Origin: Aquimarina brevivitae
GTDB taxonomy: Bacteria; Bacteroidota; Bacteroidia; Flavobacteriales; Flavobacteriaceae
DNA length: 64,000 nucleotides
Assembly: GCF_004216895.1 (NCBI RefSeq)
Contig: NZ_SGXE01000001.1
Span: 1,284,208-1,348,207, forward strand
Direction of reading: 5' to 3'
The notes under the pieces: model-generated
Seen by the model: only the letters and a program-made list of their open reading frames with translations
Databases searched by the model: none
Told to the model about the DNA's origin: nothing
Shown here: positions 15,199 to 63,779 of the stretch, piece by piece
Layout: every line of letters starts with the position of its first letter
How positions within the stretch are numbered: position 1 is the first letter of the stretch
Program-made: the position numbers and the translations under genes

Positions 15199-17220
15199 TT
15201 ATTGGATCAAACCAGCTCTTCGCAGTAATGCGTCAGGTTTGGGTTCTTGACCTCTAAACCTTTTATACAATTCCATAGGGTTTTCTGTACCTCCTTTAGA
15301 AAGTATATGTTCTTTAAAAGCGGTAGCGATTTTGGAGTTAAAGATTCCATTTTCTTTGAAAAATTCAAATGCGTCTGCGTCTAAAACTTCCGCCCACTTA
15401 TAGGAATAATACCCGGCAGCATAACCCCCTTGGAATATATGAGAAAATGCTGTGCTCATGCAGGTTTCTTCAGTCTCTGGGTATAATGCGGTATTTTTGA
15501 AGGCTTCTTTTTCATTGGTTTTTACATCAGTAATGTGGCTTGGGTCGTCAGTGTGCCAAGACAAATCTAAAAACCCAAAACTCAACTGCCTCACCGTAGC
15601 TAGACCTTCCATAAATGTCGATGATTCTTTGATTTTATGAACCAGTTCCATTGGAATCACCTCTCCGGTTTCATAGTGCTTGGCAAATAGTTCCAGAGCC
15701 TCTTGTTCATAACACCAATTTTCTAAAACCTGACTTGGTAATTCTACAAAATCCCAGTATACACTTGTTCCTGAGAGTCCGGGATAGGTCGTGTTAGCCA
15801 GCATGCCATGTAGTGCGTGACCAAACTCGTGAAATAAGGTAGTAACTTCGTTAAAAGTTAATAAAGAGGGTTTGCTGGATGTTGGTTTGGTAAAATTACA
15901 AACGATAGAAATATGAGGTCTGATATTTTTTCCACCTTTTACCATTTGAGGTTTATAGGATGTCATCCATGCGCCATTTCGTTTACCAGGTCTGGGATGA
16001 AAATCAGCATATAAAACAGCAATGAAGTTGCCCTCTTGGTCTGTGACATTGTAGGTTTTTACATCCGGGTGGTAGGTATCTATGGTTTCAGTTTTGTCAA
16101 AAGTTAATCCAAACAGTCGATGGGAAATTTCAAAAACACCTTCGATAACATTATCTAATTTGAAATAGGGTTTTAGTTTTTCGTCATCAAGATCAAAAAG
16201 TTTTTGCTTCAACTTTTCGGTATAATAAGTGCCATCCCATTTTTGAAGCTGCTTAATTCCGTCTTTTTCTTTTGCAAAGTTTTCAAGTTGCTTAAATTCT
16301 CTTTCTGCTGCAGGCTTTGCTTTGACCAGCATATCATTTAAAAAATCGTACACATTTTCTGGAGTTTCAGCCATTCGCTCTTCTAACACAAAATGAGCGT
16401 GAGATTTAAAACCAAGAAGCTGTGCTCTTTGATGTCTTAATTTAGCTATTTGTAATACGATTTTTTGATTGTCCAACTCATCGTTATGGAAACCTTTAGA
16501 CCCAAAAGCAAGGGAAAGTTTTTTGCGCAGTTCTCTGTTATCAGCATACGTCATAAAGGGAATATAACTAGGATAATCCAAGGTAATGAGCCAACCCTTC
16601 AAATCCTTTGCTTCTGCCAATGCTTTCGCAGCTTCTTTGGCTCCGTCAGGTAAACCAGAAAGATCAGATTCGTTGGTGATATGTAGTTCAAATTTATTGG
16701 TTTCGGCAAGTACATTCTCTCCAAAATTGAGACTCAACTTAGATAATTGCTTATCAATTTCGCGAAGCTTACTTTTCTTGTCCTCATTAAGATTAGCACC
16801 GTTTCTTGAAAAAGACTTGTATTTTTTGTCCAAAAGCATTTGTTGCTCCTTAGTAAGTGATAAGGATTCGCGCTGATCATAAATACGCTTTACACGTTCA
16901 AATAGCGACTTGTTTAATCTTATATCATTACTAAACTCAGATAGTAATGGAGAGATTTCTTGAGCAGTTTTTTGTATGTGTTCATTGGTCTCCGCACTAT
17001 TAAGATTAAAAAACACGCTGGTTACTCTGTCCAGGAGTTCTCCGCTATAATCTAAAGCTGCAATCGTATTATCAAAGGTTGCTGGTTCGGGATTATTCGT
17101 TATTTGATCAATTTCTTCTTTAGCTTTTTCAATTCCATTTTTTATTGCAGGCAAAAAATGCGCTGGTTCAATTTTGGAAAATGGTGCCAGATCAAAAGTA
17201 TGTAGTAATGGATTACTCAT
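15199..17220 (-). CDS. M3 family metallopeptidase (oligopeptidase A / Dcp-like)
   Basis: A 673-residue zinc peptidase of family M3. The zinc-binding motif HEFGHALHG begins at H464, with the later glutamate in the helix LPSQVLENW region. Length and layout match oligopeptidase A and peptidyl-dipeptidase Dcp, which cleave short peptides. No signal peptide is visible, so the enzyme is cytosolic, where it would finish the breakdown of peptides taken up after secreted proteases act. Between OpdA and Dcp the sequence alone does not let me choose. The gene is monocistronic between a terminator and a long non-coding gap. Confidence 0.94.
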   Translation of the reverse strand: MSNPLLHTFDLAPFSKIEPAHFLPAIKNGIEKAKEEIDQITNNPEPATFDNTIAALDYSGELLDRVTSVFFNLNSAETNEHIQKTAQEISPLLSEFSNDIRLNKSLFERVKRIYDQRESLSLTKEQQMLLDKKYKSFSRNGANLNEDKKSKLREIDKQLSKLSLNFGENVLAETNKFELHITNESDLSGLPDGAKEAAKALAEAKDLKGWLITLDYPSYIPFMTYADNRELRKKLSLAFGSKGFHNDELDNQKIVLQIAKLRHQRAQLLGFKSHAHFVLEERMAETPENVYDFLNDMLVKAKPAAEREFKQLENFAKEKDGIKQLQKWDGTYYTEKLKQKLFDLDDEKLKPYFKLDNVIEGVFEISHRLFGLTFDKTETIDTYHPDVKTYNVTDQEGNFIAVLYADFHPRPGKRNGAWMTSYKPQMVKGGKNIRPHISIVCNFTKPTSSKPSLLTFNEVTTLFHEFGHALHGMLANTTYPGLSGTSVYWDFVELPSQVLENWCYEQEALELFAKHYETGEVIPMELVHKIKESSTFMEGLATVRQLSFGFLDLSWHTDDPSHITDVKTNEKEAFKNTALYPETEETCMSTAFSHIFQGGYAAGYYSYKWAEVLDADAFEFFKENGIFNSKIATAFKEHILSKGGTENPMELYKRFRGQEPKPDALLRRAGLIQ

Positions 17221-17512
17221 TTTTAATTATTTAAGGTTTACATCTAAACGTAAAATCTAATCAGATTTTAGTAGTAGCATCACAGAAGATCAAAGATATT
17301 GAATGAGATACACTTTTAATACCACTTTTGTTTTTGATTTTTCTTCAATTTTAGCTTAGAAAAGGTGATTTTCTTGTTTGAATGTGTGTTTTTTCAAACA
17401 AATGGATAATGTATTCAGTCAAAAAAGTCGGATTTAGCTATAAATTTGTGTATTTCGTCGAAAATATTGTTAAAATTTATGTTACTTGTATGGTGTAATG
17501 AAAGTAAGGTTT

Positions 17513-17520
17513 TACCTTTG
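17513..17520 (+). promoter_or_regulatory. Candidate promoter of a small RNA
   Basis: TACCTTTG is a perfect TAnnTTTG -7 element in the long gap between the M3 peptidase and purE genes. A TTG lies at 17486-17488, 24 bases upstream. There is no coding sequence downstream on this strand, only folded sequence and a terminator. Confidence 0.5.
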
Positions 17521-17524
17521 TTAT

Positions 17525-17650
17525 AGGTTTTAAGAGTAATGGTCTTACGATAAATTTTTTTGTGTAATATATTTAAGTTGGTTAATAAATATTGTTATAT
17601 TCATTGTAAGACCTGATATTAAAAGAGTCACCATTGGTGACTCTTTTTTT
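17525..17650 (+). ncRNA. Probable small RNA, possibly 6S-like (6S-Flavo)
   Basis: About 125 bases that look like an independent RNA gene: a -7 element just upstream, a closing stem GGTCTTACGAT (17541-17551) with ATTGTAAGACC (17603-17613), an AT-rich open middle, an inner hairpin ATATTTA (17569-17575) with TAAATAT (17586-17592), and a terminator with a run of seven T at the end. A closed stem, a large internal bubble and an apical hairpin is the shape of 6S RNA, and Bacteroidota have a described 6S-Flavo family of similar size. I cannot confirm that it belongs to this family. The start of the transcript is an estimate. No reading frame is evident in it. Confidence 0.55.
17622..17650. terminator. 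Intrinsic terminator of the small RNA, possibly shared with purE
   Basis: AAAGAGTCACC (17622-17632) and GGTGACTCTTT (17636-17646) form an 11-bp stem with a 3-base loop. A run of seven T follows on the plus strand; on the minus strand four T follow, so it may also end the purK-purE transcript. Confidence 0.88.
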
Positions 17651-17673
17651 AGTATCTATATTTGAAGCTTGCT

Positions 17674-18162
17674 TTAGCTTTTATTGATTTGCTTGGCTCC
17701 TTCGATTACCTTTTGTTTAAGTCCTTCTTTGTAAACTAAAATTTTATCCAAAATACATTTGTCAGATGCACCTAAGATTTGAGCAGCCAAGATACCTGCA
17801 TTTTGTGCACCATCTAGCGCTACTGTAGCAACAGGAACTCCACCAGGCATTTGTAATATTGACAAAACCGAATCCCATCCGTCGATGGAGTTTCTTGATT
17901 TTACCGGTACGCCTATGACCGGAAGAGGAGATAAAGAGGCTACCATACCGGGTAAGTGCGCAGCTCCACCGGCACCTGCGATGATTACTTTTATACCTTT
18001 AGTGTGTGCGTTTTTGGCATAGTCGAATAATTTTTCGGGTGTGCGATGCGCTGATACGATATCAACGTCAACTTCGATATCAAAACCTTTAAGGATTTCG
18101 ATAGCTTTTTCCATAACGGGCATATCACTAGTACTGCCCATAATTACACCTACTTTACTCAT
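17674..18162 (-). CDS. purE: 5-(carboxyamino)imidazole ribonucleotide mutase
   Basis: PurE converts N5-CAIR to CAIR in purine synthesis. The 162-residue protein has the class I signatures GSTSDMPVME near the N-terminus, SAHRTP at about residue 39 with the catalytic histidine, and AGAGGAAHLPGM at about residue 62. It follows purK by four bases in the same direction, and the two enzymes act in sequence. Length is normal. It ends shortly before the terminator at 17622-17650. Confidence 0.97.
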   Translation of the reverse strand: MSKVGVIMGSTSDMPVMEKAIEILKGFDIEVDVDIVSAHRTPEKLFDYAKNAHTKGIKVIIAGAGGAAHLPGMVASLSPLPVIGVPVKSRNSIDGWDSVLSILQMPGGVPVATVALDGAQNAGILAAQILGASDKCILDKILVYKEGLKQKVIEGAKQINKS

Positions 18163-63678: not shown

Positions 63679-63779
63679 ATCCCGGATCTCACGTTCGGGA
63701 TCTTTTAATATCTAAAGTAATCTAATAACAGAGGGTTAACGATTATCGAAGGAAAGTGACCTTAATTCATAATCACCTC
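63679..63779 (+). promoter_or_regulatory. Candidate S4 leader between rpsK and rpsD
   Basis: Two hairpins. The first is ATCCCG (63679-63684) with CGGGAT (63696-63701), followed by CTTTTAATA, terminator-like. The second is a three-tier stem: GAGG (63731) with CCTC (63776), GATTAT (63741) with ATAATC (63769), and AAGG (63749) with CCTT (63760). It ends 19 bases before rpsD. In other bacteria S4 represses its own operon by binding an mRNA leader; this position fits that, but no homology was checked. Confidence 0.5.

What the first reader, a model, noticed from the sequence alone, without database searches (positions are those of the whole stretch)
17513..17650. Unannotated small RNA gene beside purE, with 6S-like architecture
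The 453-base gap between the M3 peptidase and purE genes carries, on the plus strand, a perfect TAnnTTTG element (17513), a long-range stem GGTCTTACGAT/ATTGTAAGACC (17541-17551 with 17603-17613), an inner hairpin, and a strong terminator with seven T (17622-17650). No reading frame explains this. Closing stem, bubble and apical hairpin resemble 6S RNA, and the Bacteroidota 6S-Flavo family has similar size.
Basis: partly seen in the sequence, partly recalled or inferred. Interest (0 to 1): 0.75.

Follow-up and report, generated by a model that had tools for sequence, protein, structure and literature searches.

The report
Aquimarina small RNA predicted to control curli
A small regulatory RNA gene, missing from the RNA family database searched, sits beside the purine gene purE in marine Aquimarina bacteria; it is not 6S RNA, and its nearly unchanging core is complementary to the translation start of genes for sticky amyloid (curli) fibres, so it probably controls surface adhesion.

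Summary
In detail: promoter box, long-range stem, inner hairpin and terminator are at the stated places, and the fold is far better than chance (z -6.3). The 6S interpretation is not: no RF01685 match in the gap, while the genome's 6S-Flavo lies on another contig (109.4 bits). The RNA (17525-17650, +) is genuine: 56 of 66 genus genomes hold a strong match and 12 of 18 modelled pairs show two-sided change. Its apical core is almost invariant and complementary to ribosome-binding sites. In 57 genomes, 8 of 14 near-complements outside the sRNA gene abut a start codon, four of them curlin genes; the reversed pattern gives 0. Of 27 distinct curlin leaders, 23 pair strongly, against 21 of 645 control leaders. 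The own curlin gene heads a csg gene cluster. I propose a trans-acting antisense sRNA that blocks curli translation. This is a prediction; no RNA or phenotype data were available. A tandem sRNA with another loop is present in 40 of 57 genus genomes, and other genera have sRNA-like genes in the same gap.

The parts
17506..17518 (.). AAGG-TTTTA-CCTT inverted repeat overlapping the -7 box; operator candidate
   Evidence: AAGG(N4-6)CCTT in 45 of 52 distinct upstream sequences of the genus
17513..17520 (+). TACCTTTG, Bacteroidota -7 promoter box (TAnnTTTG; consensus recalled)
   Evidence: TAnnTTTG in 48 of 52 distinct upstream sequences, TTG 19-21 nt further up in 43 of 52. The window itself reads TGG at the -33 place
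17525..17650 (+). the small RNA (type A), about 126 nt; 5' end inferred from promoter spacing and the start of the conserved AGGTTTTAAGAG
   Evidence: fold z -6.3; model R1 finds it in 59 of 66 genus genomes, 56 of them at 79 bits or more
17525..17538 (+). conserved 5' leader AGGTTTTAAGAGTA, unpaired in the fold
   Evidence: AGGTTTTAAGAGT in 45 of 49 rows of A1; the agarilytica-type rows L031, L033, L063, L070 differ
17541..17551 (+). 5' arm of the closing stem
   Evidence: pairs with 17603-17613; 6 of 9 modelled pairs have two-sided changes in 49 distinct sequences
17562..17585 (+). almost invariant core GTGTAATATATTTAAGTTGGTTAA, the predicted mRNA-pairing region (loop 17576-17585)
   Evidence: A1 (the 49 rows were collected through an exact 24-nt stretch overlapping this core, so that stretch is identical by selection; variants are seen in G348, G346, G359). 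Complementary to start-codon regions
17586..17600 (+). 3' arm of the inner hairpin
17603..17613 (+). 3' arm of the closing stem
17621..17650 (+). intrinsic terminator, 12-bp stem and T7
   Evidence: 6 of 9 modelled terminator pairs have two-sided changes
15199..17220 (-). peptidase family M3 gene, left neighbour
   Evidence: PF01432; found in 30 of 30 genus loci L002-L031
17674..18162 (-). purE, right neighbour, convergent with the sRNA
   Evidence: PF00731; found in 28 of 30 genus loci L002-L031

Best explanation
It is a stand-alone small RNA with its own Bacteroidota-type promoter and terminator. A variable closing stem holds up a nearly invariant AU-rich arm and a 10-nt loop (AGUUGGUUAA). 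Shown by computation: the RNA is conserved as a structure, and its core is complementary to the last 25-30 nt before the start codon of curlin (csgA-like) genes, including, with mismatches, the first gene of the csg cluster in the window's own genome. Inferred: the loop pairs first with UUAAYCA in the curlin leader, the pairing runs into the arm and covers the ribosome-binding site, and translation of the curli operon falls. Conditions that switch on the sRNA promoter would thus lower production of adhesive amyloid fibres. A few other secreted or surface proteins have similar sites in one to three species each and may be further targets.
For: Real RNA: z -6.3; 56 of 66 genus genomes strong; 12 of 18 pairs with two-sided change, 97.3% of cells paired, shuffles as high 0 of 500 on four measures and 1 of 500 on the fifth, slid structures 39-54% paired. 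Antisense core: the 24-nt complement with up to 3 mismatches in 57 genomes gives 14 sites outside the sRNA gene; 8 lie within 3 nt of an ATG or overlap it, 6 are one orthologous coding-internal site; the reversed pattern gives 0. Four of the 8 precede curlin-repeat proteins (PF07012). In G348 the sRNA core reads AAATTGG instead of AAGTTGG; all three of its curlin sites read CCAATTT and two match its sRNA at 24 of 24. Genus test: 23 of 27 distinct curlin leaders at -14 kcal/mol or better against 21 of 645 control leaders; TTAAYCA in 21 of 28 against 18 of 645; 0 of 300 dinucleotide-shuffled cores reach the observed mean. Leaving out G348 and G008, by which curlin was noticed, 21 of 25 remain. 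Own genome: the curlin leader ranks 4th of 356 genes (z -3.3; 4 of 1000 mononucleotide-shuffled cores do as well), and csgB-like, CsgE, CsgF and CsgG genes follow it.
Against: No transcript, TSS or phenotype was available. The own curlin site is imperfect (-17.7 to -18.5 kcal/mol) and three sampled genes score better. Four of 28 curlin leaders (G350, G339, G011, G019) pair poorly. An exact 11-nt seed within 24 nt of an ATG is not enriched: 124 matches against 145 for the reversed pattern in 57 genomes. 14 of 57 genomes have no detected curlin repeat, among them G003, G005 and G007, which carry the sRNA. In G195, of another genus and without an R1 match, an exact 18-nt complement lies 10 nt before the start of an unrelated ORF, so such a site can arise without the sRNA. 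The curlin leaders are related by descent and are not independent tests. Repression rather than activation is assumed from the site's position.
Confidence: 0.67

Rival explanations
1. A trans-acting antisense sRNA whose main targets are species-specific secreted proteins and peptides rather than curli; the curlin leader resembles the site for another reason.
For: Near-complementary sites also abut the starts of a T9SS-tailed 1049-aa protein (G005), two lipoproteins judged by eye (G333, G020) and Cys-rich peptides (G335; weaker in G025, G017); genomes without detected curlin keep the sRNA; the best own-genome pairing found is a dCache/HAMP membrane protein.
Against: Only curlin was seen to recur across clades (23 of 27 distinct leaders); the others were seen in one to three species.
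Confidence: 0.15
2. A protein-binding (titrating or RNA-polymerase-binding) RNA: the invariant arm is a protein site, and complementarity to leaders is a by-product of AU-rich start regions.
For: An invariant stem-loop on a variable stem is also typical of protein-binding RNAs (recalled); the exact short seed is not enriched; an exact 18-nt complement also occurs before a start in G195, which has no R1 match.
Against: 0 of 300 dinucleotide-shuffled cores pair with curlin leaders to the observed mean; the reversed 24-nt pattern gives 0 sites in 57 genomes; sRNA and target agree in a variant base in G348.
Confidence: 0.12
3. A second or divergent 6S RNA.
For: Size, a closing stem and an apical hairpin.
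Against: No RF01685 hit in the gap up to E 10; the 6S-Flavo is elsewhere in the genome, 109.4 bits; the most conserved element is the apical arm and loop.
Confidence: 0.02
4. Only a shared terminator and promoter debris between convergent genes, without a functional RNA.
For: The terminator lies just beyond the purE stop and could serve purE on the other strand.
Against: Conserved core, covarying closing stem and conserved promoter box.
Confidence: 0.02

Closest known systems
6S-Flavo RNA (Rfam RF01685)
   Same: Size near 110-130 nt, closing stem with apical hairpin, same phylum
   Different: No covariance-model match in the gap; the genome's 6S-Flavo is on another contig
Rfp18 of Flavobacterium psychrophilum (Guerin et al. 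2021, PMC9723704; abstract, the section on small RNAs and passages read)
   Same: Flavobacterial stand-alone sRNA, conserved in its genus, strongly folded, affecting mRNAs of secreted proteins
   Different: Its deletion lowered two metalloprotease mRNAs, and the predicted pairing region is its third stem-loop. R1 gave no true relative among the other 295 sampled genomes of the order; whether F. psychrophilum was among them is unknown
Enterobacterial sRNAs that act on curli through csgD mRNA (RprA, McaS, GcvB: passages of PMC5745457; OmrA/B: recalled, only a listing seen)
   Same: Small RNA control of curli
   Different: Those act on the regulator csgD; here the predicted site is the leader of the csgA-like structural gene. 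Sequences were not compared
FopS paralogous sRNAs of Bacteroidetes (Rfam RF04319)
   Same: Bacteroidota sRNAs occurring as paralogues (family description)
   Different: 16.2 bits against a cut-off of 56

Membership tests
6S-Flavo RNA (RF01685) | Covariance-model score above the gathering score of 85 bits | tested here: not met
   No match in 17300-17850 at E up to 10; the genome's 6S-Flavo is G000:C8:23069-23177, 109.4 bits
6S-Flavo RNA (RF01685) | Binds RNA polymerase and templates a short product RNA | not testable with these tools
   needs biochemistry
Trans-acting base-pairing sRNA | Own promoter and intrinsic terminator | tested here: met
   TAnnTTTG in 48 of 52; terminator with covariation; transcription itself not shown
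Trans-acting base-pairing sRNA | Conserved secondary structure with compensatory changes | tested here: met
   12 of 18 pairs, 0 of 500 shuffles reach it
Trans-acting base-pairing sRNA | Conserved core with a loop complementary to mRNA start regions at other loci | tested here: met
   8 of 14 off-locus sites abut a start codon; curlin leaders 23 of 27 against 21 of 645 controls. Null: exact 11-mer seed 124 against 145 reversed
Trans-acting base-pairing sRNA | Changes target expression | not testable with these tools
   needs a mutant or reporter
Rfp18 | Sequence homology with F. psychrophilum Rfp18 | not testable with these tools
   no supplement look-ups were available; the section and passages read give no sequence or neighbouring genes
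Any other Rfam 15 family | Score above the family's gathering score | tested here: not met
   The only match in the window is an S4 leader at 63741; 20 related loci give only a tRNA

The most novel reading that the evidence does not exclude
The purE-M3 gap is an ancient small-RNA locus of the Flavobacteriaceae. One scaffold has given rise to different RNAs (types A and B in Aquimarina, type A relatives and perhaps type C in other genera) whose loops were swapped to aim at different mRNAs, and in Aquimarina type A switches the curli amyloid operon by covering the csgA start.
Probability: 0.35. Interest if true: 0.8.

Novelty: new member of a known kind. Interest (0 to 1): 0.62.

Why it matters
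Few Bacteroidota sRNAs outside Bacteroides have a plausible target (recalled; my searches showed one, Rfp18). This one comes with a site, a covarying partner and a simple phenotype (curli, Congo red), so sRNA control of amyloid adhesion in marine surface-dwelling bacteria becomes directly testable. The same gap holds sRNA-like genes in other genera, which offers a handle on how sRNA seeds change over long times. It also shows that the 6S label would have been wrong although the shape looked right.

Tried and rejected
6S membership: rejected. Other Rfam families: six weak matches (best E 0.42), five of which reach into the terminator; rejected. R1 in 296 genomes of the order: own genome and two weak hits, G241 and G037, which lie at terminators after coding sequence; rejected. 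Exact 18-mer core in 397 family genomes: 4 hits, three of this genus and one (G195) that is no sRNA but an antisense site 10 nt before an ORF start. Exact 11-mer seed near ATG: 124 matches against 145 for the reversed pattern. Own-genome 17-mer with 2 mismatches: 7 hits, one the sRNA itself; of the other 6 none abuts the start of an ORF of 45 aa or more, but one (L165) stands 2 nt before an ATG that opens a 27-aa frame. Sense-orientation matches in G027 and G030 upstream of an ABC transporter: not targets. Coding-internal site in six genomes (G001, G002, G004, G024, G027, G030): not counted as a target. G357's 36.7-bit R1 hit lacks the core; rejected. Type B loop against curlin leaders: CCCC in 11 of 19 full-length leaders against 48 of 645 controls, but nearly all from one clade, and the energies are mixed; inconclusive. 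Homology of type C with type A by R1: not significant (E 0.55 and 0.78 at the right place in 2 of the 14 loci). Dropped rows: curlin loci L196 (G002) and L197 (G004), whose ORF ran off the locus; L192 (G019) is also open to the locus edge but was kept and counts as a miss. L277 was dropped from the type C set because it has no M3 neighbour.

Full report
OBSERVATION. The strand 17527-17652 folds at -34.8 kcal/mol, z -6.3 against 200 dinucleotide shuffles. The gap lies between a family M3 peptidase and purE, both on the minus strand. The sRNA is on the plus strand, so it runs towards purE.

NO SIGN OF 6S. Rfam finds nothing in the gap at gathering scores and nothing of the 6S family at E up to 10. 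One 6S-Flavo was found in the genome, on contig C8, at 109.4 bits against a cut-off of 85.

THE RNA IS REAL. By DNA search 31 of 33 genomes of the genus, the own genome included, have a match; the two misses are 55% and 89% complete. A scan of named genomes for a 24-nt part of the core gave 51 stretches: 49 titled Aquimarina, one uncultured Flavobacteriaceae bacterium, one Bacteroidia MAG. Model R1 was built from 49 distinct sequences; they were collected through that exact 24-mer, so its identity in A1 is by selection. With R1, 59 of 66 genus genomes match. 56 reach 79 bits or more. G346 and G359 have 43 and 42.7 bits on another contig than purE, with a slightly changed core. G357 is not convincing. 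In 30 of 30 loci examined (L002-L031) the M3 gene is present and in 28 purE is too. The closing stem and the terminator covary: 12 of 18 modelled pairs changed on both sides, 97.3% of cells paired, shuffles as high 0 of 500 on four of five measures and 1 of 500 on the fifth, slid structures paired in 39-54% of cells. The inner arm and loop hardly vary; RNAalifold left the inner hairpin out of the consensus and it has no covariation support. The promoter box is kept in 48 of 52 distinct upstream sequences, the TTG 19-21 nt further up in 43 of 52 (not in the window, which has TGG), and an AAGG-CCTT repeat over the box in 45 of 52.

WHY THE CORE IS KEPT. Several short matches to the core elsewhere in the genomes are antisense to translation starts. 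I therefore searched 57 genus genomes for the 24-nt complement with up to 3 mismatches. Fourteen sites lie outside the sRNA gene; the reversed pattern has none. Six of the 14 are one coding-internal site in six genomes. The other eight lie within 3 nt of an ATG or overlap it: three curlin-repeat genes in G348 and one in G008 (PF07012), a T9SS-tailed protein in G005, lipoproteins (judged by eye) in G333 and G020, and a Cys-rich peptide in G335. Weaker sites (4-5 mismatches) precede sister peptides in G025 and G017. In G348 the sRNA has one changed base in the core; all three curlin sites agree with it at that base and two match at 24 of 24. In G008 the same curlin sequence would use a G-U pair.

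CURLIN ACROSS THE GENUS. Curlin repeats are found in 43 of 57 genus genomes. I took the 30 loci the tool returned, one per genome, and dropped two (G002, G004) whose ORF ran off the locus; three of the remaining leaders are cut at 30 nt by the locus end. Of 28 leaders (27 distinct), 23 of 27 pair with the core at -14 kcal/mol or better, against 21 of 645 leaders of other predicted genes from the own genome and the genus. TTAAYCA is in 21 of 28 against 18 of 645. 0 of 300 dinucleotide-shuffled cores reach the observed mean (first form). Without G348 and G008, 21 of 25. Misses: G350, G339, G011, G019. The leaders are related by descent, so this is not 27 independent tests. In the own genome the curlin gene lies at G000:C1:1,443,272-1,444,786 (L198:13273-14787), followed by a second curlin-repeat gene, CsgE, CsgF and CsgG. 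Its leader ranks 4th of 356 genes, each gene being allowed several start codons; 4 of 1000 mononucleotide-shuffled cores pair with it as well. The best scorer is a dCache/HAMP protein with CTAACCAACTTATATTACC directly before its ATG, a further candidate.

NULLS AND RESULTS AGAINST. The exact 11-nt seed within 24 nt of an ATG is not enriched: 124 matches against 145 for the reversed pattern in 57 genomes, so there is no sign of a large regulon with a rigid seed. In the own genome none of 6 looser 17-nt sites abuts an ORF of 45 aa or more; one stands 2 nt before an ATG with a 27-aa frame. 14 of 57 genomes have no detected curlin repeat, and some of these, such as G003, G005 and G007, carry the sRNA, so curli cannot be its only use everywhere. 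In G195, of another genus, an exact 18-nt complement lies 10 nt before an ORF start although R1 found no sRNA there.

MECHANISM. Shown: a conserved structured RNA gene with promoter box and terminator, and complementarity of its core to curlin ribosome-binding sites. Inferred: loop-first pairing, block of translation, lower curli. Not shown: transcription, direction of the effect, need for a chaperone.

THE LOCUS IS LARGER THAN THE WINDOW SHOWS. In many relatives a second sRNA (type B) lies upstream in the same gap, mostly about 300 nt away, with a similar leader (AGGTTTATTAG), a short closing stem, a terminator and a different loop (GGGGUAUG); 7 of 14 modelled pairs have two-sided changes. 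The rows were collected through GGGGTAT. Model R2 reports 43 of 57 genomes; in G000, G331 and G348 the only hit is type A itself, leaving 40 of 57. No type B was found in the window's own genome. [quoted passage not shown] Two of the 29 (L274, L258) carry type A relatives in that gap (45.5 and 40.4 bits). Fourteen carry a sRNA-like gene of about 85 nt (type C): TTAATAGC, by which I picked them, then a terminator with two-sided changes in 5 of 11 pairs; 12 of 14 have the promoter box. Homology of type C to type A rests on place and a similar TTGRTTAATA in part of the rows; R1 does not support it. Of these loci 17, with two Aquimarina gaps and the csg locus, were scanned with Rfam: only a tRNA.

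LITERATURE. Guerin et al. 2021 (PMC9723704; abstract, small-RNA section and passages read) is the one report of a flavobacterial sRNA with a tested effect among my searches. Searches for Aquimarina with sRNA, curli with sRNA and Flavobacteri, Aquimarina with curli, and Flavobacteriaceae with small regulatory RNA listed no report that I could recognise of this RNA; I judged them from listings and the starts of abstracts, plus passages of PMC5745457 and PMC9331221. They cover open-licence PMC papers only.

VERDICT. A real sRNA without an Rfam family; 6S not supported; most likely an antisense regulator of curli. New member of a known kind, with an unusually testable target. On checking I lowered the main reading from 0.68 to 0.67 (G195 site) and the bold reading from 0.40 to 0.35 (type C motif was a selection criterion).

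Noticed in passing
L003:1230-1350, L020:1224-1343, L016:1256-1377 and others; not found in window 17221-17500: Tandem type B sRNA upstream of type A in 40 of 57 genus genomes, similar scaffold, loop GGGGUAUG; not found in the window's genome.
   Followed up: partly
L253, L256, L257, L260, L262, L263, L265, L266, L269-L271, L273, L275, L276 (purE-M3 gap): Other Flavobacteriaceae genera have an ~85-nt sRNA-like gene (type C) in the same gap, with TTAATAGC (the selection criterion) and a covarying terminator.
   Followed up: partly
window 17506-17518: Inverted repeat AAGG-TTTTA-CCTT over the -7 box, kept in 45 of 52 distinct promoters: possible operator.
   Followed up: partly
L213:4490-4511 (G000:C1 about 1,624,489-1,624,510): Leader of a dCache/HAMP membrane protein carries CTAACCAACTTATATTACC directly before its ATG, the best pairing with the sRNA among 356 sampled own-genome genes.
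   Followed up: partly
L152:1549-1707, L085:1576-1764, L087 (minus strand, start near 1510): Short Cys-rich peptides with sRNA complementarity at the start codon; no Pfam family. L084 holds a relative without an ATG at that place.
   Followed up: no
L014 / L041 (EG16N_Bin3): Two tandem copies of the type A sRNA in one genome.
   Followed up: no
L098 (G007:C15:43121-43222): A second, diverged type A-like copy with another closing stem, 39.1 bits.
   Followed up: no
window 63741-63774: S4-Flavobacteria ribosomal protein leader, 46.7 bits.
   Followed up: no
window 17453-17464; upstream of the sRNA in L003, L008, L011, L020 and others: TTTCGTCGAAAA / TTTATCGAT-type short repeats recur upstream of the sRNA across the genus.
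   Followed up: no
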